Part shown: positions 2,275 through 17,312 of the stretch, piece by piece | How positions within the stretch are numbered: the first letter of the stretch is position 1 | Layout of the letters: every line of letters begins with the position of its first letter | Source of the DNA: Aurantiacibacter poecillastricola | GTDB lineage: Bacteria > Pseudomonadota > Alphaproteobacteria > Sphingomonadales > Sphingomonadaceae | DNA length: 17,592 nt | Assembly: GCF_030730945.1 (NCBI RefSeq) | Contig: NZ_JAVAMS010000012.1 | Span: forward strand, 1-17,592 | Reading direction: 5' to 3' | The notes under the pieces: generated by a model | The model's database searches: none | Told to the model about the DNA's origin: nothing | Seen by the model: only the letters and a program-made list of their open reading frames with translations | Program-made: the position numbers and the translations under genes

Positions 2275-4520
<2,246 letters not shown>

Positions 4521-4524
<4 letters not shown>

Positions 4525-4820
4525 TGGTCCGTCCATTCATATGTCAGCGGCGCTTCACGGAAGGCGAAGCGATCAATGTGACGTTCGATCACGCCGCGCA
4601 TCCTCTCATTTTCTTCTGCATCAGCCGTCGTCAGCGTGATGGCGATGCCGCCAGCTTTTGCGATCATCTCGGCATTGGTCTGATCCGAGAAGGGAAACTG
4701 GCCCATGCCATCCCCTTCATCATAGCATGCCGCCATCTTGTGACCCCAATGCTTGACGAGCTGCTGGATATAGCGCTCGGGCTTTTCGCAGGCCGCAAAT
4801 CCGGTGGCGGTGGTGCTCAC
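4521..4820 (-). CDS. DUF2218 family small protein of unknown function
   Basis: The predicted protein is 99 residues with no signal peptide or membrane segment. It resembles the DUF2218 family: an N-terminal ARYxxQLxxHxGHK-like stretch (here RYIQQLVKHWGHKM), a central basic/acidic strand region, and the C-terminal pattern ERHIDRFAFRE followed by L-T-Y-E-W. The family has no established biochemical role that I know of. It sits between ligJ and ligA with 4-base overlaps on both sides, so it is translated as an integral part of the protocatechuate operon. A helper role for the dioxygenase or for iron handling is speculation. The family assignment is from pattern memory and is fairly secure. Confidence 0.85.
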
Positions 4821-6730: not shown

Positions 6731-6841
6731 TTCATGCGCCTGCAGCCGGTGCTGGGCACATTTTGACACGGATCAAAGAGTGGCGCGTGGATTGGCGCGA
6801 TGCCCCTTTCTGCACGCCAGATCGAAGATGGGAGAATGGAT

Positions 6842-7204
6842 ATGACAATTGCTGGAATGACCGGGGAGGCAGGGCAGCCCATACCGGGCACGCATCTGTT
6901 TGACGGGGATGCGGCGAAGAAGGGCTATGCCATCAACGCCATGTGCTTTTCCTTCAATCACGATGAAAACCGCAAGGCATTTCTGGAAGACGAAGCCGCC
7001 TATTGCGCCAAGTTCAATCTGACGCCTGATCAGCTGGAAGCAGTCGCCAATCGCGATGTGCTGGGCATGATCGCTGCCGGCGGCAACATCTATTACCTCG
7101 CCAAGCTGGCCGGAATTTTCGGGCTGAATGTGCAGGATGTGGGCGCGCTCCAGACCGGGCTCAGCCTCGATGAATTCAAGCAGCGCCTGCTCGACCAGGC
7201 ATAA
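6842..7204 (+). CDS. Second LigA-type extradiol dioxygenase small subunit
   Basis: The predicted protein is 120 residues and clearly homologous to LigA. It has PGTHLFDGDAAKKGYAINAM aligning with the LigA PGTRV...ARKGYHINQFAM region, and AGGNIYYLAKLAGIFG aligning with LGGNVYFLSKLFSTDG. It lacks the LigA C-terminal RSIKGGY tail and is about 20 residues shorter. I chose ATG 6842 because GGAG at 6831-6834 is 7 bases upstream; ATGs at 6800 and 6836 are in frame but worse placed. It is followed after 22 bases by the second LigB-type gene, so the two should form a complete alpha/beta enzyme. Substrate is not determined by the sequence. Confidence 0.88.
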   Translation: MTIAGMTGEAGQPIPGTHLFDGDAAKKGYAINAMCFSFNHDENRKAFLEDEAAYCAKFNLTPDQLEAVANRDVLGMIAAGGNIYYLAKLAGIFGLNVQDVGALQTGLSLDEFKQRLLDQA

Positions 7205-7226
7205 GAAGAACGTAAGGGAGATTACC

Positions 7227-8066
7227 ATGGCCGAGATTGTTGGCGCCTATTTTACCAGTCATGTGCCCGCCATTGGCGGTGCCATTGCCCGCGGGGATCA
7301 GGGCGATCCCTATTGGAAGCCGTTTTTCGATGGCTTCCCCAAGGTTCGCGAATGGCTGAATGAAGTGAAGCCCGATGTGGCGATAACTTTTTCAAACGAT
7401 CATGGGCTGAACTTCTTCCTCGACAAGATGCCAACCTTTGCCGTGGGCGCAGCCGAGCAATACACCAATGCCGATGAAGGATGGGGGCTGCCTACCTATA
7501 AGCCGATGCAGGGTTTTCCTGAATTGAGCTGGCACATCATCAACAATCTGGTCGAAGATGAATTCGATCCGGTGTCCTGCCAGGAAATGCTGGTCGACCA
7601 TGCATTGTCGATTCCCTTCGAACTGGCCTGGCCCGATGCTGATGCATGGCCCGTGCGCGTGGTGCCGATTGGCATCAACACGGTGCAGCACCCGCTGCCA
7701 TCAGCCAAGCGCTGCCTGGCCTTGGGGCGCAGCGTGCACAAGGCGGTGACGAGCTGGCAGGGCAATGAGCGCATTGTGGTGATCGGCACGGGCGGATTGT
7801 CGCACCAGCTTGATGGCGAACGCGCCGGTTTCATCAACAAGGATTACGATGCCTTTTGCATGGATAGCCTGGCATCTGATCCTGACGCCATGACGCGCGA
7901 TTCAATTCACGAGATTGTGCGGCTGGCCGGGACACAAGGCGTGGAAATCCTCAATTGGATCGCGGCACGCGGGGCGCTGGGCCCGGCTGCGCGCGAAATA
8001 CACCGCAATTACCACATCCCCATTTCCAACACGGCGGCAGCCACCATGGTGCTGGAAGCGGCCTGA
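7227..8066 (+). CDS. Second LigB-type class III extradiol dioxygenase catalytic subunit
   Basis: The predicted protein is 279 residues. It keeps every catalytic residue at the same numbering as the LigB in this window: H12 and H59 plus E240 (iron ligands), H193 in GTGGLSHQ, and H125 in VDHA. It should therefore be an active ring-cleavage enzyme. It diverges clearly from the first LigB elsewhere: the segment after H12 and the stretch FSNDHGLNFFLDKMPTF are different. It is not fused to its small subunit, unlike the gallate dioxygenases DesB/GalA. Ribosome-binding site AAGGGAG lies 6 bases before the ATG. Substrates could be protocatechuate, gallate, 3-O-methylgallate or another substituted catechol carboxylate; the sequence cannot decide. 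Confidence 0.92.
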   Translation: MAEIVGAYFTSHVPAIGGAIARGDQGDPYWKPFFDGFPKVREWLNEVKPDVAITFSNDHGLNFFLDKMPTFAVGAAEQYTNADEGWGLPTYKPMQGFPELSWHIINNLVEDEFDPVSCQEMLVDHALSIPFELAWPDADAWPVRVVPIGINTVQHPLPSAKRCLALGRSVHKAVTSWQGNERIVVIGTGGLSHQLDGERAGFINKDYDAFCMDSLASDPDAMTRDSIHEIVRLAGTQGVEILNWIAARGALGPAAREIHRNYHIPISNTAAATMVLEAA

Positions 8067-8087: not shown

Positions 8088-9236
8088 TCATTGCGATTGC
8101 GCAGCCTTGTCCAGCAGGCTGAGAAATTCGCGATGGACCTCTGTGGGATGCCAGGATGCGCGGGTGGTGACCCCGATCGTGCGGCCAAATTCGGCCGGCA
8201 AACGCGCGATCAGGGTCAGCCATCCCGCCTCCAGCTCCACCCGCACCTGATCAGGGGATAGCAGGGTGAGAAAATCGCTGCCCATCAGCATTTCGCGAAT
8301 GGTCATGACCGATCCCGATTCCACCGGAACCTTGGGCGGGGGTACTCCGCAAGCTTCGAAATAGCGTTCAAACACATCGCGCAATGGGGCACCTGGTCCC
8401 GCGAGCACCCAATCATAGTGCGCCAGTTCGGCCGGCTGCGGCGCCGCATTATCCAGCGGGTGGCCCTTGCGACCCACCACCACCGGCACATCGTGAAATA
8501 ATTCGCGCTGATCCAGATCGGGTTCGATCAATGGCTGGCGCAACGCCCCCACCATCATGTCAATCGTGCCGCTGCGCAAAGGTTCAACCAGTTCAGCCCG
8601 ACTGCCTTCCAGAATGGTCAGCTGCACTGCCGGGCGCTGGCGAATGAACTGAGTGACGGCAGCGGGTAAAACGCGCGCGCGCGACAAGGGCATCGCCCCC
8701 ACCGCAATCGCACGCGTTTCCAGCCCTCGCAGCGAAGCAAGTTCAGCAAGCCCGGTCTGCAATTCCTTTTGCGCCAGGCGAAATGCGCGCGCCATGGCCT
8801 GCCCCGTATCGGTTAGCGCCACCGCCTTGCCGCGCCTTTCCACCAGCTTCTTCTTGCCCGACAATGCCAGATCACCAACCGAGCGGTGGAGCGATGGGAG
8901 CGACAGCCCGGTCAACGCGCTGGCCCCGCTATAACTGCCCGTTGCTGCCAGCGCGATCAGCGCCCGCATGCGCGACATGGTGACATGCGGGCTGGCGATA
9001 TGCGACAGCGCCGCCTCTATCCGTGGCACAAACAGATCGGCCGCAGGGGTCGGCACCATGCCATCATGGCGCCGTTCAAACAGTTGGTGGCCAAGCAGCT
9101 CTTCCATCCGCTTTAAAGCCTGCGTTATCGCCGGTTGCGTCAGATTGACTGAGCTCGCCGCCCGTTTCACCGTTTGCAAACGGGCAATTTCAGCCACCGC
9201 CTGAAGGTGCCGCAGGTTGAGATGCCAGATATCCAT
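8088..9236 (-). CDS. LysR-type transcriptional regulator with two tandem N-terminal HTH domains
   Basis: The predicted protein is 382 residues, about 80 longer than a normal LysR regulator. Residues 6-66 form a first LysR HTH (LRHLQAVAEIARLQTVKRAA ... LTQPAITQALKRMEE). Residues 88-147 form a second (RALIALAATGSYSGAS ... LSLPSLHRSVGDLA ... LTDTGQAMAR). From about 172 comes the periplasmic-binding-protein-like effector domain, beginning RAIAVGAMPLSRARVLP, similar to the GbpR/PcaQ branch. The TTG-initiated extension to 9254 is less likely than ATG 9236. It is divergent from ligK and convergent with the second LigAB pair with only 21 bases between. By position it is the probable activator of the lig genes, responding to protocatechuate or a related acid (inference). 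Confidence 0.92.
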   Translation of the reverse strand: MDIWHLNLRHLQAVAEIARLQTVKRAASSVNLTQPAITQALKRMEELLGHQLFERRHDGMVPTPAADLFVPRIEAALSHIASPHVTMSRMRALIALAATGSYSGASALTGLSLPSLHRSVGDLALSGKKKLVERRGKAVALTDTGQAMARAFRLAQKELQTGLAELASLRGLETRAIAVGAMPLSRARVLPAAVTQFIRQRPAVQLTILEGSRAELVEPLRSGTIDMMVGALRQPLIEPDLDQRELFHDVPVVVGRKGHPLDNAAPQPAELAHYDWVLAGPGAPLRDVFERYFEACGVPPPKVPVESGSVMTIREMLMGSDFLTLLSPDQVRVELEAGWLTLIARLPAEFGRTIGVTTRASWHPTEVHREFLSLLDKAAQSQ

Positions 9237-9340
9237 CGACCTATACTTAGCCAAAACTAATCACCAGACCAAGTATTGCGACTTCACACTCATGCGAAGT
9301 GGGCACATGCCCGAACTCCATCAGAACAGGAGTGGTGTGC
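9237..9340. promoter_or_regulatory. Divergent LysR-regulator / ligK control region with inverted repeats
   Basis: This 104-base spacer holds three inverted repeats: TTAG-N6-CTAA at 9247-9260, ATACTT-N22-AAGTAT at 9243-9276, and ACTTC-N10-GAAGT at 9281-9300. LysR regulators usually bind such interrupted dyads between divergent genes, so this is the expected place for autoregulation and ligK-ligU-ligI activation. The CTTAGCC core recurs at 6709-6715 in the other lig control region. I could not settle convincing -35/-10 boxes. The ligK ribosome-binding site AGGAG is at 9328-9332, 8 bases before the ATG. Confidence 0.5.
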
Positions 9341-10129: not shown

Positions 10130-12071
<1,942 letters not shown>

Positions 12072-12093
12072 GCCGACAAGTTCGAGACTTTGC

Positions 12094-12130
12094 GCGATGG
12101 GGCGGACCGTCTGCCCGGCCACCCCATCGC
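12094..12130. terminator. Bidirectional hairpin between ligI and nadC
   Basis: A perfect 9-bp stem, GCGATGGGG (12094-12102) and CCCCATCGC (12122-12130), has a 19-base loop. It fills most of the 66-base gap between the convergent ligI and nadC stops. There is no clear T run on either side, so termination strength is uncertain, but its position fits a shared terminator. Confidence 0.6.
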
Positions 12131-12137
12131 ACTAAGA

Positions 12138-13004
12138 TCAGGCATTCGCGTAATCGAGGCCGATATCGGCCGCAGGCGCGCTCTGCGTAATCCGCCCGAC
12201 CGAGACAAAGTCCACGCCGGTTTCCGCAATCGCGCGAATGGTGTCGAGCTGCACCCCGCCCGATGCCTCTATCGGCACGCGGCCTGCCACCAGCGCCACG
12301 GCTTCACGCAGCATGTCTGGCGTCATATTATCGCAAAGCAGACGTTCAGCCCCGGCAGACAGCGCCGGTTCGATCTGGTCTATCCGGTCAACTTCAACCT
12401 GCACTTCCAGCCCGGTTTTGGCCGCAACCGCACCGCGCACCGTTTCTTCCAGCGATCCGACAATGGCGATGTGATTATCCTTGATCAGGATGCCATCATC
12501 CAGGCGCAAGCGGTGATTGGTCGCCCCGCCGACATGCGATGCGTATTTTTCCAGCACACGCAGGCCGGGAATGGTTTTGCGGGTATCGAGCAGCGTGCAG
12601 CCGGTACCTTCAATCGCATCGGCATAGGTACGCGTCAGCGTGGCAATACCGCTCAGATGCTGCAGCGTGTTGAGCGCTGAACGCTCCGCTGTCAGCATGG
12701 GTCGCCCTGCCCCTTCCAGCCGCAGGATTGGCGTGCCGGGCGCCAGCTTTGCGCCATCTTGCGCAAGCCGCTCCACCACTACATCGCCATCCAGCCGCCG
12801 GAAGAATTCTTCCGCCAGTTCGACGCCTGCCAGGACGATTTCCTGCCGAGTGGCAATTTCTGCTTTCAGTCTCGCAGCAGCAGGCACCGTCACCTCGCTT
12901 GTAACGTCACCGCCCTTGCCGAGATCTTCGGCAAGGGCGGCGGTTACGAAGCGATCAAGCTCTGCTGCATCAAGGCCTGAGACAAGCCCTGTTTGCTGAT
13001 TCAT
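12138..13004 (-). CDS. nadC: Nicotinate-nucleotide pyrophosphorylase (quinolinate phosphoribosyltransferase)
   Basis: This is the de novo NAD synthesis enzyme: quinolinate plus phosphoribosyl pyrophosphate gives nicotinate mononucleotide, CO2 and pyrophosphate. The protein is 288 residues, the normal length. Signature segments are AERSALNTLQHLSGIAT, LLDTRKTIPGLR, KYASHVGGATNHRLRLDDG with ILIKDNHI, and EASGGV / VDFVSVGRIT at the C-terminus; all catalytic basic residues in these motifs appear intact. Its ATG overlaps the stop of the upstream Rieske oxygenase gene by 4 bases (ATGA), so it appears co-transcribed and translationally coupled with it. No nadA or nadB is nearby. A ModD-like role is unlikely given the canonical NadC motifs. 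Confidence 0.94.
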   Translation of the reverse strand: MNQQTGLVSGLDAAELDRFVTAALAEDLGKGGDVTSEVTVPAAARLKAEIATRQEIVLAGVELAEEFFRRLDGDVVVERLAQDGAKLAPGTPILRLEGAGRPMLTAERSALNTLQHLSGIATLTRTYADAIEGTGCTLLDTRKTIPGLRVLEKYASHVGGATNHRLRLDDGILIKDNHIAIVGSLEETVRGAVAAKTGLEVQVEVDRIDQIEPALSAGAERLLCDNMTPDMLREAVALVAGRVPIEASGGVQLDTIRAIAETGVDFVSVGRITQSAPAADIGLDYANA

Positions 13005-14335
13005 TCGGCGGGCTCTGTCGCCGCAGTCTTGGACGCACTGGCGCTGTCGCGCAGCGCCTGTTCTTCAGCGCTGATATTCCGCTCTTTCCAATCTTCACCC
13101 TTGGGCACCATGCCCTGGAAAGAGATGAGCTTGGACTGCGGCAATACATCACCTGCTGTGCCAATGGCCGGTTCACCCTTGGCCACAGCCTGCGCGGCGC
13201 GATACATCTGGGTGCGGAAGGTGAAGATCGCCTTGTCGCTGGTGCCCAGATTGTCTTCACTGCGATCGGCAATTTTGCCCATCGATTCCCACATCGCCAT
13301 ATCCTGGCAGGGAATGCCGTAAATGCCGGTGAAATCGCCTGCCTTCATGGCTGCGCGATCCTGCAGGTAGCCATTCTCGTAATTGCGGACCTTCTTGTAG
13401 GTGACAGGCTCCACATCCTTGCCAACTTCAGCACCGCAGAACTTGCGCCACGCATCCTGCGTGATGCCCTTTTCCGGGTCTTCGCTCCAGGCGATCCAGT
13501 AGAAATAGGTGTTCTCATCATCCACCGGGATCAGCAGCTGGCTGAGGTGGTATTGATCGTTTGACGGGATCACCGCAGTGAACGGCGCAATGAACAAGGT
13601 CGTGCGCACATAATCCTGCTTGTCTGCATCGACCAGCGGCTTGCGGATCGCGGCATAGCGGAAACCAAACGGTGTCTTTTCCACTTCGATGCGCGGCGAT
13701 TTGTCTGCTGATGGCCGCAGCCATGCAGTTTCGGTCGCGGTAGATCCGCTGACATCGGTCGCAGCCGGCATGTTGCTGGAATGCAGGCTGGAGCTGTGCG
13801 AGCTGTCGATCGCACCTTCCAGGATCTGCGCCCAATTGCAGGCACCGTGGATCTTCATGATCGAAATCTTGCCTTCGGCAGCGGTCGACCAGTTGGGCGC
13901 GTTGAATTCCGCGACATTGTCAGGATCGCCCATCCAAACCCACACAAAGCCCGAATTCTCGATGACCGGGAAGGCGCGCGTCTTCATCTTGGAATGCATG
14001 TGCGAACCATCAGGCTCTGACGACATGTCGACGACATTGCCGTTCACGTCGAACTTCCAGCCGTGATAGAGGCAGCGCAGGCCACATTCTTCGTTACGAC
14101 CGAACACCAGCGATGCGCGGCGGTGCGGGCACAGCTCGTCAAGCGCGCCAACCTTGCCTTCCGAATCGCGGAAGACGACCATGTTTTCGCCCAGCAGGCG
14201 CACGCGCAGCGGCGTGCCATCGGGCTCGGCCACTTCTTCGATCATGCAAGCAGGAATCCAGTGCTGCCGCATCAAAGTGCCCATCGGGGCATCGCCCTCG
14301 ACACGGCAAAGAAGATCATTTTGTTCAGGTGTCAT
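13001..14335 (-). CDS. pht3: Rieske oxygenase, phthalate 4,5-dioxygenase oxygenase-type
   Basis: This is the terminal oxygenase of a ring-hydroxylating system, predicted to convert phthalate to cis-4,5-dihydroxy-4,5-dihydrophthalate. The protein is 444 residues. The Rieske [2Fe-2S] ligands are C69-x-H71 and C88-x2-H91. The mononuclear iron motif shows N167, D177, H180 and H185 (GAIDSSHSSSLH). The N-terminus MTPEQNDLLCRVEGDAPMG...R.HWIPA resembles the phthalate/isophthalate dioxygenase and LigXa demethylase branch. That branch has several substrates; phthalate is inferred from the divergent pht4 and pht5 genes. The start at 14335 is supported by AGGAGA 8 bases upstream. Its reductase partner is not in the window. 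nadC follows with a 4-base overlap. Confidence 0.88.
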   Translation of the reverse strand: MTPEQNDLLCRVEGDAPMGTLMRQHWIPACMIEEVAEPDGTPLRVRLLGENMVVFRDSEGKVGALDELCPHRRASLVFGRNEECGLRCLYHGWKFDVNGNVVDMSSEPDGSHMHSKMKTRAFPVIENSGFVWVWMGDPDNVAEFNAPNWSTAAEGKISIMKIHGACNWAQILEGAIDSSHSSSLHSSNMPAATDVSGSTATETAWLRPSADKSPRIEVEKTPFGFRYAAIRKPLVDADKQDYVRTTLFIAPFTAVIPSNDQYHLSQLLIPVDDENTYFYWIAWSEDPEKGITQDAWRKFCGAEVGKDVEPVTYKKVRNYENGYLQDRAAMKAGDFTGIYGIPCQDMAMWESMGKIADRSEDNLGTSDKAIFTFRTQMYRAAQAVAKGEPAIGTAGDVLPQSKLISFQGMVPKGEDWKERNISAEEQALRDSASASKTAATEPAE

Positions 14336-14419: not shown

Positions 14420-14457
14420 TTGCAATTGCTTCTATATCGAAGTATTCCATTTTGCAA
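14420..14457. promoter_or_regulatory. Candidate divergent promoters and MarR operator between pht3 and pht4
   Basis: A 22-base imperfect palindrome (14425-14446) has arms ATTGCTTC and GAAGTATT around TATATC, with 6 of 8 arm positions complementary. It is flanked by two TTGCAA hexamers (14420-14425 and 14452-14457). Read rightward, TTGCAA with a 17-base spacer gives TATTCC; read leftward it gives TATAGA or TAGAAG at 15-17 bases. So two overlapping divergent promoters may share one central operator. MarR proteins often bind palindromes of this size. The boxes are weak and the regulator link is inference. Confidence 0.45.
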
Positions 14458-14503: not shown

Positions 14504-15685
14504 ATGACGAGTGTAAACCTCGCAATTGTGGGACTTGGGCGTGGATTTATGCTGACCCTGCCGGCGTTGCGCGATAATCCAGCGGTCAGGTTGCGCGCCG
14601 CCTTTTCGCTGCGGACGGAACCGCGCGAACATTTTGCCAAGCAATTTGACGCCATTGCCTGCGACAGTTTCGAATCGCTGTTGGCGCTCGATGAGATCGA
14701 CGCCGTCTACATCGCCACGCCGCATGAAATTCATGCCGAACAGACCATCGCTGCCGTGCGCGCGGGCAAGCACGTGCTGGTCGAAAAGCCGATGGCGATC
14801 GGCCTGAAGGATTGCATGGCGATGGAGGCAGCCGCGCAGGAAGCCGGGAAGATCATCATCGTCGGGCCCAGCCATGGCTTCGACGCACCTATCCAGAAGG
14901 CCGCCGAGCTGGTCGCCTCGGGCGAATTCGGCGCTTTCCGGATGATCACCACCTTCAACTTCACCGACTTTATGTATCGTCCACGCCGCCCGGAGGAACT
15001 CGATACATCGCGCGGCGGGGGCGTGGTCTATAGTCAGGCGGCACATCAGATCGATCTGGTCCGGCGGATCGCCGGCCTGCCTGTTTCCTCGATCCGGGCG
15101 ACCGCCGCGAACTGGGACCCGAAGCGGCCCAGCGAAGGGGCCTACTCCGCCCTGATGACCTTCGAAGGCGGTGCATGGGCCACCATGACCTATAGCGGTT
15201 ATGCCCATTACGATGTCGACGAGCTGGTCGGCTGGATCTCCGAACTGGGCTTTGACAAGGATCCGCAGGCCTATGGTGCCGCCCGCCGCAGGCTGGCCAA
15301 TATGAGCCCGGAAGATGAGATCGCCGCGAAGGTCAGCCGCACTTATGGGCCGGGCAGCGAATCCGACAGCCCGCCGCGCGCGCCGCATCACGAGCATTTC
15401 GGCTACCTGCTTGTCAGCTGCGACAAGGCCGACCTGAAGGTGACGCCGACTGAGATTACCGTCTATGGCAATAGCGAACGGCAGGTGATCGACATCCCGC
15501 CGCCACGGCTGCCGCGTGTCGAGGTGATCGACGAATTCGTTGGCGCCATTACCGGCGAAATTACCCCGGTCCACAATGGCCGCTGGGGCGTCGATACCAT
15601 GGCCTGCTGCGAGGCCCTGCTCGAATCGAGCCGCACGGGAGAGGAAATCTCGCCCGGCGCTATCATCAACAACCTATCGTTTTGA
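14504..15685 (+). CDS. pht4: Phthalate 4,5-cis-dihydrodiol dehydrogenase (Gfo/Idh/MocA family)
   Basis: This NAD-dependent cytoplasmic dehydrogenase is predicted to oxidise cis-4,5-dihydroxy-4,5-dihydrophthalate to 4,5-dihydroxyphthalate. The protein is 393 residues from ATG 14504. It has an N-terminal Rossmann strand with GLGRG (residues 10-14) and the family's catalytic E-K-P motif (94-96, in GKHVLVEKPMA). The C-terminal oxidoreductase domain includes GGGVVYSQAAHQIDLVRR. Pht4-type enzymes belong to this family, and the downstream decarboxylase supports the call. The start is not certain: ATG 14468 has a better GAGAG site and would add 12 residues, whereas 14504 gives a typical N-terminus. 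The gap to the next gene is 22 bases. Base composition here looks more GC-rich than in the oxygenase gene. Confidence 0.85.
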   Translation: MTSVNLAIVGLGRGFMLTLPALRDNPAVRLRAAFSLRTEPREHFAKQFDAIACDSFESLLALDEIDAVYIATPHEIHAEQTIAAVRAGKHVLVEKPMAIGLKDCMAMEAAAQEAGKIIIVGPSHGFDAPIQKAAELVASGEFGAFRMITTFNFTDFMYRPRRPEELDTSRGGGVVYSQAAHQIDLVRRIAGLPVSSIRATAANWDPKRPSEGAYSALMTFEGGAWATMTYSGYAHYDVDELVGWISELGFDKDPQAYGAARRRLANMSPEDEIAAKVSRTYGPGSESDSPPRAPHHEHFGYLLVSCDKADLKVTPTEITVYGNSERQVIDIPPPRLPRVEVIDEFVGAITGEITPVHNGRWGVDTMACCEALLESSRTGEEISPGAIINNLSF

Positions 15686-15707
15686 AAACTTCGGAGAGAA
15701 ATCCAAC

Positions 15708-16700
15708 ATGACCCGTCTTAATCTTTCAATGGCCTGCTGGGGATATGACCGCACAGAAGCCCTGCAGACCGGCGAGGTCCGCCCCGACGGGATCGATCTC
15801 AACTTCCAGGCGCTGGAGGTTGAGGAAACCTTCTTCCGCCAGGCCAAGTTTCAGGAATTCGACGTTTCGGAAATGTCGATGTCATCCTATTGCGTGACGC
15901 TGGGCCGCGACAATCCCCCCTTCATCGCCATCCCTGTCTTCCCTTCACGCTTCTTCCGCCATTCCTGCATTTTCGTTTCGACCAAAAGCGGGATCGAAAA
16001 GCCGTCTGATCTGGTCGGCAAGCGCATTGGTGTGCCCGAATATCAGATGACCGCGCCGGTCTGGATTCGCGGCATCTTGCAGGATGAATATGGCGTCGAT
16101 CCATCCTCTGTCACCTATGTGACGGGCGGCGAAGAATCGCCGGGGCGCGAGGAGAAGCTGAAGCTGGACCTGCCGGAAAAGTTCAAGGTGGAACCGATCG
16201 GCCCTAACGATACGCTCACCCGGATGCTGGCCGATGGCGAGATTGACGCGCTCCACACCGCCCGCGCACCCTCGACCTTCTACAGCGAGCCCGAAAACGT
16301 GCGCCGCCTGTTCCCCGACTTCGTCGAGGTGGAAAAGGCCTATTACAAGAAGACCGACATCTTCCCGATCATGCATGTGGTGGCCATCCGCCGCGAAACC
16401 TATGAAAAGAACCGCTGGATTGCGCAGGCGCTGTTCAAGGCCTTTAAGGAAGCGCAACAGCTGACCTATGAGCAGCTTAAGGTCACAGCTTCTCTCAAGA
16501 CCATGCTGCCATGGCAGGTCGCCTCACTGGAAGACACGATTGCGACCATGGGCGACAGCTGGTGGCCCTATGGCGTTGAGCCCAATCGCCACGTGATCGA
16601 GACCTTTACCCGTTATCACCACGAACAGGGCCTTTCACCGCGGCAGCTGACGGTGGAAGAAATGTTCGCGCCCGAAACCTTTGCTGAATTCGTGATCTGA
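15708..16700 (+). CDS. pht5: 4,5-dihydroxyphthalate decarboxylase
   Basis: This enzyme removes one carboxyl from 4,5-dihydroxyphthalate to give protocatechuate, linking the phthalate branch to the lig pathway. The protein is 330 residues, the usual size. It has the periplasmic-binding-protein-like fold of this family without a signal peptide, so it is cytoplasmic. Recognisable stretches are the N-terminal ACWGYDRTEALQTGEVRPDG, EFDVSEMSMSSY near residue 47, LVGKRIGVPEYQMTAPVWIRG near 105, and DGEIDALHTARAP. The start ATG is supported by GGAGAG at 15693-15698 with a 9-base spacing. Confidence 0.93.
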   Translation: MTRLNLSMACWGYDRTEALQTGEVRPDGIDLNFQALEVEETFFRQAKFQEFDVSEMSMSSYCVTLGRDNPPFIAIPVFPSRFFRHSCIFVSTKSGIEKPSDLVGKRIGVPEYQMTAPVWIRGILQDEYGVDPSSVTYVTGGEESPGREEKLKLDLPEKFKVEPIGPNDTLTRMLADGEIDALHTARAPSTFYSEPENVRRLFPDFVEVEKAYYKKTDIFPIMHVVAIRRETYEKNRWIAQALFKAFKEAQQLTYEQLKVTASLKTMLPWQVASLEDTIATMGDSWWPYGVEPNRHVIETFTRYHHEQGLSPRQLTVEEMFAPETFAEFVI

Positions 16701-16769
16701 TTGATCCGGCCGTGCTGCCCTGTTGGGGCGGCGCGGCTGGCCGATTGCCTTTGCGCGGCAAATGGCAAT

Positions 16770-17312
16770 ATGCTGGCTGGCAGCAGGGGCGCTTTGCCCC
16801 AGAGCGAAGTTGCGGAGCCAGAAATCTTGCCGGCCAAGCCCCGTTATATCAAACCGCAAGATAGTGCGGGCTATCAGGTGCGCCGCGCCCATCGCCGGTT
16901 TGACCGGCTGCTCAGTGCCTTTCTGTCACAGCATGGGCTGAAAACCGGGCACTGGTATTATCTGCGCGTCTTGTGGAATGAAGATGGCGTCACGCAGAAA
17001 TATCTCAGCGACATGACCAATGTGGCGGAGAACACCACCGCCACGCTGATCAATTCCATGGTGCAGGAAGGGTTGGTGACTCGCCAGCGAGACCCGCATG
17101 ACCGGCGCAAATTTGCAATTCTGCTGACCGAGCGCGGGCGCGCGCTGGAAAGCGAATTGATGGGCTATGCCGCCCAGATCAATGCGATTGCAGGGGCAGG
17201 CATTGACCAGACAGAAATCGACACTTGCCTCAGCGTCCTTGAACGCATGTCAGGCAATCTGGCGCAAGCTTTTGGCGATCTGCAAAAAGGCACCGCCGCC
17301 AGCGAGGGCTGA
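16770..17312 (+). CDS. MarR family transcriptional regulator
   Basis: The predicted protein is 180 residues from ATG 16770. It has a winged-helix domain at about residues 61-120 (YYLRVLWNEDGVTQKYLSDM ... TTATLINSMVQEGLVTR) with the MarR wing D-x2-D-R-R at 108-113, flanked by dimerisation helices. The start is uncertain: TTG 16827 has GGAG 9 bases upstream and would give 161 residues, nearer the usual MarR length; TTG 16701 abuts the pht5 stop. It lies 69 bases after pht5 on the same strand and probably forms part of that unit. By position it is the likely repressor of the phthalate genes, acting at the palindrome between pht3 and pht4 (inference). Confidence 0.88.
   Translation: MLAGSRGALPQSEVAEPEILPAKPRYIKPQDSAGYQVRRAHRRFDRLLSAFLSQHGLKTGHWYYLRVLWNEDGVTQKYLSDMTNVAENTTATLINSMVQEGLVTRQRDPHDRRKFAILLTERGRALESELMGYAAQINAIAGAGIDQTEIDTCLSVLERMSGNLAQAFGDLQKGTAASEG

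What the first reader, a model, noticed from the sequence alone, without database searches (positions are those of the whole stretch)
12138..14335. nadC translationally coupled to the phthalate dioxygenase gene: possible relief of NAD-synthesis inhibition by phthalate
The nadC start overlaps the Rieske oxygenase stop (ATGA), so the two share a transcript controlled at the phthalate promoter. Quinolinate, the NadC substrate, is pyridine-2,3-dicarboxylate, the aza-analogue of phthalate. Phthalate is a known active-site ligand and inhibitor of quinolinate phosphoribosyltransferase and has been used in crystal structures. Co-inducing NadC with phthalate attack could compensate for this inhibition, or this copy could be a phthalate-tolerant version. 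A simpler alternative is higher NAD demand from the dehydrogenases, or chance adjacency.
Basis: partly seen in the sequence, partly recalled or inferred. Interest (0 to 1): 0.75.

Follow-up and report, generated by a model that had tools for sequence, protein, structure and literature searches.

The report
Spare NAD gene inside phthalate operon
A sphingomonad carries extra copies of an NAD-making enzyme gene built into its phthalate-degradation operons, most likely because phthalate mimics that enzyme's substrate and jams it; the idea was published for Burkholderia in 1999, and here different bacteria appear to have found the same fix several times.

Summary
[quoted passage not shown] The genome has three nadC: one housekeeping, two in phthalate clusters, both overlapping a PDO gene. 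Added here: (1) in 51 Sphingomonadaceae searched, all 10 extra nadC lie next to a PDO; none of 38 genomes without PDO has an extra copy. (2) nadC lies within 10 kb of PDO in 21 of 44 PDO-bearing genomes from four surveys, in several layouts. (3) A tree rejects a single origin of the linked copies. (4) A palindrome, TACTTCnATATnGAAGTA, precedes the operon whichever gene is first; its only three close matches in this genome are in phthalate clusters. Tested active-site residues are kept. Four sphingomonad-specific changes fall in or beside the active-site lid, so a phthalate-tolerant variant is possible but unproven. In some other genomes the phthalate-cluster nadC is the only one found, four times of foreign (alphaproteobacterial) type.

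The parts
12138..13004 (-). nadC: quinolinate phosphoribosyltransferase, phthalate-cluster copy (288 aa)
   Evidence: TIGR00078 above cut-off; QRPTase_N/C; residues 107, 108, 142, 143, 164, 165, 175, 204, 225 (active-site assignment partly recalled) identical in all 47 phthalate-linked rows; dN/dS 0.07-0.12 among five linked pairs
13001..13004 (-). ATGA: start of nadC overlapping the stop of the oxygenase gene
   Evidence: sequence
13001..14335 (-). [quoted passage not shown]
   Evidence: Rieske + LigXa_C; 7fjl E 6.7e-160; 74-79% identical to oxygenases of Sphingobium, Novosphingobium and Porphyrobacter plasmids
14427..14444 (.). palindrome TGCTTCTATATCGAAGTA (consensus TACTTCnATATnGAAGTA), probable operator between the divergent pht4 and PDO-nadC units
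   Evidence: 1 match in the window, 0.07 expected; at most 2 mismatches in all 29 related loci with PDO of 71% identity or more; only 3 sites with at most 2 mismatches in the genome, all in phthalate clusters
14504..15685 (+). pht4-like Gfo/Idh/MocA oxidoreductase (phthalate dihydrodiol dehydrogenase by position)
   Evidence: GFO_IDH_MocA; same place in the clusters
15708..16700 (+). pht5-like 4,5-dihydroxyphthalate decarboxylase
   Evidence: 82% identical to the protein annotated 4,5-dihydroxyphthalate decarboxylase on plasmid pCAR3
16701..17312 (+). MarR-family regulator, candidate reader of the palindrome (start codon uncertain; homology begins near residue 54)
   Evidence: MarR_2/MarR; several MarR-type models match from residue 53-64 on; a relative lies in most clusters
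12088..12136 (.). inverted repeat (18-nt arms, 83% complementary) between the convergent ends of nadC and the amidohydrolase gene 11169-12071; possible shared terminator
   Evidence: the T-run terminator scan found nothing there

Best explanation
An extra quinolinate phosphoribosyltransferase (NadC), made together with phthalate dioxygenase, keeps de novo NAD synthesis running while the cell holds phthalate. Phthalate is a carbon analogue of quinolinate and occupies the NadC active site as a dead-end competitor. With nadC in the oxygenase operon, behind a phthalate-cluster operator and overlapping the oxygenase gene, the cell would make more NadC when phthalate is present. SHOWN here: gene identities, overlap, extra copies, their restriction to phthalate clusters in this family, conserved operator-like site, intact active-site residues, purifying selection, more than one origin. 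SHOWN elsewhere: phthalate binds the human enzyme like quinolinate (PMC4726147); ophE in B. cepacia DBO1 (recalled). INFERRED: co-transcription, induction by phthalate, inhibition of this genome's housekeeping NadC, growth benefit.
For: Three nadC in the genome, two overlapping PDO genes, one (C1) housekeeping. In 51 Sphingomonadaceae (13 PDO+, 38 PDO-) all 10 extra full copies have their C-terminal domain 71-405 bp from a PDO match; 0 of 38 PDO- genomes has an extra copy. nadC within 10 kb of PDO: Sphingomonadaceae 7 of 13, order of Halomonas 10 of 12, Hyphomicrobiales-type order 3 of 10, Burkholderiales 1 of 9 PDO+ genomes (recount). More than one nadC over 150 bits: 17 of 44 PDO+ against 1 of 98 PDO- genomes (for the 44; the 98 counted by hand). 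Tree: the phthalate-linked label needs 8 changes, 8 of them forced by supported branches in the careful 99-row tree, 5 in the quick 151-row tree; one clade rejected, p-AU 6e-58. The palindrome precedes the unit whichever gene is first and is near-exclusive to phthalate loci in this genome. Human QPRT: Kd phthalate 5.2 uM, quinolinate 4.8 uM (PMC4726147). nadA was not recruited: the only nadA match in the genome lies on C1, 650 kb from the C1 nadC.
Against: 23 of 44 PDO+ genomes have no nadC within 10 kb, among them all five Sphingomonadaceae genomes with a PDO of 67-71% identity and G302 with an 84% PDO (some of the 23 are fragmentary or gave no nadC at all), so it is helpful, not required. 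The palindrome also precedes PDO in 4 of 29 loci without a nadC match (L082, L083, L122, L129): it is the oxygenase's site, which nadC shares. In the human enzyme phthalate affinity falls about 6-fold when PRPP is bound, so inhibition in cells may be milder. No expression or enzyme data here. The sigma-70 scan found no promoter at the oxygenase, which is uninformative for this group.
Confidence: 0.8

Rival explanations
1. The copy is a phthalate-tolerant NadC: changes in the active-site lid let it tell quinolinate from phthalate, so quality rather than quantity of enzyme is supplied.
For: 12 near-fixed differences (80% or more on both sides) separate sphingomonad housekeeping (39 rows) from linked copies (19 rows, some near-identical); four sit at alternate positions just after His164-Arg165: G167R, W169D, A171G, M173L. 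By the constant spacing to human H160/R161/K171, positions 167, 169 and 171 are in loop L, described as a lid over the substrate, and 173 matches human M169, which contacts the nicotinate moiety (PMC4726147 passages). All 47 linked rows have Leu at 173; housekeeping rows Leu 60, Met 40.
Against: Leu173 and Asp169 are common in ordinary NadC of other groups; R167 also occurs in four housekeeping rows (L052, L058, L077, L341), and L052, the only nadC of G197, has R167, D169, G171 and L173 without linkage; among linked rows R167 is confined to the sphingomonad ones. So these may be inherited from the donor. The charged residues tested are unchanged.
Confidence: 0.25
2. The oxygenase or transporter draws down quinolinate (PDO co-metabolises the aza-analogue), and extra NadC outcompetes that drain.
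For: Recalled abstract of Chang & Zylstra 1999 says that the phthalate pathway co-metabolises quinolinate; would explain linkage to the oxygenase itself. No call bears on it.
Against: Not testable here; does not exclude competitive inhibition.
Confidence: 0.3
3. General NAD(H) demand during aromatic degradation favours an extra nadC.
For: The pathway has NAD-dependent dehydrogenases (inference from gene families).
Against: Other Rieske-oxygenase places of the same family have no nadC within 10 kb (0 of 26 tested); nadA is not co-recruited in this genome.
Confidence: 0.07
4. Chance adjacency, or an ancestral nadC position that the phthalate genes moved into.
For: In G401, G403-G406 and G409 (Hyphomicrobiales-type MAGs) and in G936, G986, G1066, G1122 the linked nadC is the only full one found.
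Against: Linkage recurs in different orders and orientations, in 7 of 16 opened plasmid records; PDO- relatives have one nadC; seven nadA regions of the single-copy genomes hold no nadC; in G936, G986, G1066 and G1122 the linked nadC is of alphaproteobacterial type although they were drawn from the order of a Halomonas genome, so it moved in.
Confidence: 0.02

Closest known systems
ophE of Burkholderia cepacia DBO1 (Chang & Zylstra 1999, J Bacteriol 181:3069; text not held, content recalled, title seen in a reference list)
   Same: Second quinolinate phosphoribosyltransferase gene tied to phthalate genes, beside a separate housekeeping copy; proposed to offset phthalate inhibition.
   Different: Here nadC overlaps the oxygenase gene and is present twice; sphingomonad linked copies group with alphaproteobacterial nadC, while the three beta-type linked copies (L043, L044, L218) group with beta nadC. 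ophE itself was not in the tree; G470 (linked copy 7.0 kb from PDO) stands in for that arrangement.
phtD of Sphingobium yanoikuyae SHJ plasmid pSES189 (PMC6051330, passages seen; L038)
   Same: Same gene order pht5-pht4 / PDO-nadC-ferredoxin-reductase as the C12 copy; nadC start overlaps the PDO stop by 1 nt; same operator-like site with 1 mismatch.
   Different: The window cluster has no ferredoxin and reductase after nadC and lies next to a lig-type (protocatechuate 4,5-cleavage) set on a contig that begins inside gyrB.

Membership tests
NadC (quinolinate phosphoribosyltransferase) | Full-length two-domain enzyme above curated cut-off | tested here: met
   TIGR00078 288.7 bits vs 198.4; QRPTase_N and _C
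NadC (quinolinate phosphoribosyltransferase) | Conserved catalytic and substrate-clamp residues | tested here: met
   E107, R108, R142, K143, H164, R165, K175, E204, D225 in 47 of 47 linked rows; functional assignment partly recalled, partly PMC4726147
NadC (quinolinate phosphoribosyltransferase) | Enzyme activity | not testable with these tools
   no assay
ophE-type phthalate-linked nadC | Extra nadC beside an intact housekeeping copy | tested here: met
   three copies in G000
ophE-type phthalate-linked nadC | Located with phthalate 4,5-dioxygenase, dihydrodiol dehydrogenase and decarboxylase genes | tested here: met
ophE-type phthalate-linked nadC | Induced by phthalate | tested here: inconclusive
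   shared operator-like palindrome only
ophE-type phthalate-linked nadC | Loss slows growth on phthalate only | not testable with these tools
   needs a mutant
ModD (molybdenum-operon paralogue) | modD model above its cut-off | tested here: not met
   TIGR01334 62.1 bits vs cut-off 178.85

The most novel reading that the evidence does not exclude
Phthalate-cluster NadC proteins are a recurrent, convergently evolved class of phthalate-resistant quinolinate phosphoribosyltransferases: the sphingomonad class is tuned by lid-loop changes (R167, D169, G171, L173) that favour quinolinate over phthalate, and in other lineages the phthalate-cluster enzyme, sometimes acquired from another class of bacteria, has replaced the housekeeping one altogether, so that all de novo NAD synthesis depends on a gene in a catabolic cluster.
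Probability: 0.2. Interest if true: 0.72.

Novelty: new member of a known kind. Interest (0 to 1): 0.48.

Why it matters
A pollutant that mimics a vitamin precursor seems to select for a protective duplicate of the enzyme it jams, more than once. That would make a linked nadC a practical marker for phthalate operons, help explain why some phthalate degraders do better than others (useful for bioremediation strains), and offer natural pairs of enzymes for asking whether an active site can learn to tell quinolinate from phthalate. The conserved palindrome gives a directly testable phthalate regulon.

Tried and rejected
Literature: the 1999 ophE paper is not held, so its content is recalled. Searches that could have shown earlier reports of repeated recruitment brought up only PMC6051330 as relevant by title and listing; the library lacks most subscription journals, so this says little about what is in print.

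Universal tolerance signature: I looked for columns where at least three linked lineages depart from the housekeeping majority. Most of those found look like plain alpha/beta/gamma differences; I found no signature shared by all linked lineages. The lid-loop differences are sphingomonad-specific and partly donor-like (L052), so they are a rival, not the main explanation.

Promoter and terminator scans gave nothing beyond chance. TTGCAA pairs flanking the palindrome occur in 3 of 11 loci and were dropped in favour of the palindrome.

Rows dropped: of 152 extracted nadC proteins, one fragment (L302) was left out of the 151-row tree; 53 names (near-copies, thinned housekeeping rows, fragments and six long branches) were left out of the 99-row careful tree; five rows were left out of the residue counts (47 linked, 100 housekeeping). 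I assigned the labels linked/housekeeping from coordinates; 'housekeeping' means only 'not near a PDO'. L237 and L215 (G558, two copies, PDO on another contig) and L188 (third copy of G407) carry that label without proof.

Samples: 16 of 46 plasmid hits were opened, 7 of 16 with nadC within 6 kb. Of 80 kept genome loci (best of 587), 34 had a nadC match (flanks up to 9 kb, many contigs shorter). PDO- control genomes were the first listed handles plus, in the family, the same-genus ones and some with other Rieske matches; not a random draw. PDO+ means E <= 2e-134 for the places in the family survey and E <= 1e-100 in the three order surveys, with a different PDO as query in each order.

No structure prediction was run; loop positions rest on residue spacing to the human enzyme as described in PMC4726147.

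Full report
WHAT IS THERE. The window is a whole 17.6-kb contig (G000:C4). On its minus strand, 14335-13001 encodes a Rieske oxygenase of the phthalate 4,5-dioxygenase kind and 13004-12138 encodes NadC. They overlap by ATGA. Divergently, pht4- and pht5-like genes and a MarR regulator follow (14504-17312). The contig begins inside gyrB and carries lig-type genes for protocatechuate 4,5-cleavage, among them two LigB-type subunits, so phthalate to protocatechuate to ring cleavage could run here. Ferredoxin and ferredoxin-reductase genes are not seen after nadC here but follow nadC in the second cluster on C12.

COPIES. The genome has three nadC genes: C1 (neighbours a LytTR response regulator and a ribonuclease T2-family gene), the window copy, and C12, where a second oxygenase and nadC also overlap by 4 nt, with GTG as start. 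The only nadA match is on C1, 650 kb from the C1 nadC.

SURVEY, SPHINGOMONADACEAE. Of 397 genomes of the family, 47 match the oxygenase at E <= 1e-60; 18 places in 13 genomes lie at E <= 2e-134 (called PDO+), the remaining 47 places at E >= 1e-95. I searched nadC in 51 genomes: the 13 PDO+ and 38 others, 11 of them of the same genus. All 38 have one nadC (in G007 one gene in three pieces). Seven PDO+ genomes have 2 or 3, and all 10 extra full copies have their C-terminal domain 71-405 bp from a PDO match; one more PDO (G178:C23) has a nadC cut off by the contig end (L096/L166). Six PDO+ genomes have one unlinked copy: G302 (PDO 84%) and the five with PDO of 67-71% identity. Control: 0 of 26 other Rieske places have a nadC within 10 kb (26 of 47, those in genomes with nadC searched).

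SURVEY, OTHER GROUPS. Burkholderiales: 9 of 399 PDO+ at E <= 1e-100; 1 of 9 linked (G470, 7.0 kb, with a second unlinked copy); four of the nine gave no nadC at all. Order of Halomonas: 12 of 390 PDO+; 10 of 12 linked within 10 kb, six of these with a second, unlinked copy. Hyphomicrobiales-type order: 10 of 347 PDO+; 3 of 10 linked. Together 21 of 44 linked and more than one nadC above 150 bits in 17 of 44; among the 98 PDO- genomes searched, 1 (G428) has more than one above 150 bits (counted by hand). Layouts differ: PDO-nadC overlapping (sphingomonads), nadC-PDO (L036, L037), PDO-pht5-transporter genes-nadC (L134, Halomonas), pht4-nadC with PDO divergent (L331-L333, L336), nadC divergent or further off (Acidovorax, Polaromonas, Thalassospira plasmids).

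ORIGINS. In a quick 151-row tree and a careful 99-row tree linked copies form several groups. The label needs 8 changes; supported branches force 5 in the first and 8 in the second tree; holding all linked rows of the second tree together is rejected (p-AU 6e-58). Changes may be gains or losses, so 'several recruitments' is the safe wording. Sphingomonad, beta and Halomonas-type linked copies sit beside ordinary nadC of their own class. Others do not: G936, G986, G1066 and G1122 were drawn from the order of a Halomonas genome, yet their linked nadC groups with alphaproteobacterial rows (best unlinked matches 55-59%, all in the Hyphomicrobiales-type sample), and the linked copy of G402 and G1456 is nearest to sphingomonad-type rows and apart from those genomes' own second copy. 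So clusters with nadC also move between groups. Within sphingomonads the linked copies are one group apart from L193, sister to the sole nadC of G197 (L052) and distinct from the family's housekeeping genes; identical copies occur on plasmids and in different genomes (L038 = L056 = L057).

FUNCTION KEPT. dN/dS in five pairs of linked sphingomonad copies is 0.07-0.12, in two housekeeping pairs 0.10-0.11 (Nei-Gojobori, dS high in several pairs). The tested active-site positions are unchanged.

CONTROL REGION. A palindrome, consensus TACTTCnATATnGAAGTA, lies between the divergent units (window 14427-14444). It occurs with at most 2 mismatches in all 29 loci whose PDO is at least 71% identical: in 27 it lies 42-116 bp before the PDO match, and in the two with nadC first it lies before nadC (many loci are near-copies). 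Four of the 29 have no nadC match (L082, L083, L122, L129), so the site belongs to the oxygenase promoter and nadC has been placed under it. Shuffled loci gave 1 hit (up to 3 mismatches) in 1.46 Mb. In this genome only three sites have at most 2 mismatches: the two PDO-nadC promoter regions and one next to an MFS transporter gene on C12; four further sites have 3 mismatches, against 1 for the reversed control pattern. The C1 nadC locus has none. This is the best evidence here that nadC is put under phthalate control; which protein binds the site is not known.

MECHANISM. Phthalate binds human quinolinate phosphoribosyltransferase in a highly similar mode and with the same affinity as quinolinate and cannot go on to product; with PRPP bound its affinity is about 6-fold lower (PMC4726147, passages). 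A cell full of phthalate would therefore be short of NAD unless NadC rises. That is the 1999 explanation for ophE (recalled); the 2018 paper cites it for phtD, saying that the gene enhances growth of strain DBO1 on phthalate. The sphingomonad copies also differ from housekeeping NadC at four positions in or beside the lid, including the counterpart of human M169, which contacts the nicotinate moiety. These could give tolerance, but descent from a donor with the same residues (L052) explains them as well.

SINGLE-COPY LINEAGES. In G403-G406 and G409 (Hyphomicrobiales-type MAGs) and in G936, G986, G1066 the only full nadC found is in the phthalate cluster, while nadA is present elsewhere; the seven nadA regions examined (not that of G409) contain no nadC. 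G401 and G1122 also have a single linked copy, but no nadA was found. In G936, G986, G1066 and G1122 the sole copy is of foreign type. These appear to be drafts (many contigs), so replacement of the housekeeping gene is likely, not proven.

VERDICT. Real, well explained, and already known in kind. What is added is the breadth, the repeated origin, the conserved start-stop overlap, the operator-like site and the hint that the phthalate-cluster copy can become the only one.

Noticed in passing
window 8088-9254 (-): LysR regulator (PcaQ-like) with two HTH_1 stretches by Pfam, i.e. apparently a duplicated N-terminal DNA-binding domain.
   Followed up: no
window 3231-4536 (-) and 6800-8066 (+): Two divergently oriented LigA/LigB-type ring-opening dioxygenase gene pairs in one contig.
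   Followed up: no
L004 (G000:C12:5000-24000): Second phthalate cluster in the same genome, with ferredoxin and reductase after nadC and an MFS transporter gene beside its own copy of the palindrome.
   Followed up: partly
L188 (G407:C21:42799): A third, very divergent nadC in a Marinobacterium lutimaris genome that already has a phthalate-linked and a further copy.
   Followed up: no
L052 (G197:C1:804349): Sole nadC of a sphingomonad-family genome without PDO that groups with the phthalate-linked copies and shares their lid-loop residues; possible donor lineage.
   Followed up: partly
L274 5393-6307 (G470): Linked nadC in a Burkholderiales genome 7.0 kb from the oxygenase, an arrangement resembling the recalled ophE locus.
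   Followed up: partly
L331-L333, L336 (G986, G1066, G936, G1122): Alphaproteobacterial-type nadC as the only nadC in small genomes drawn from the order of Halomonas, inside their phthalate clusters.
   Followed up: partly
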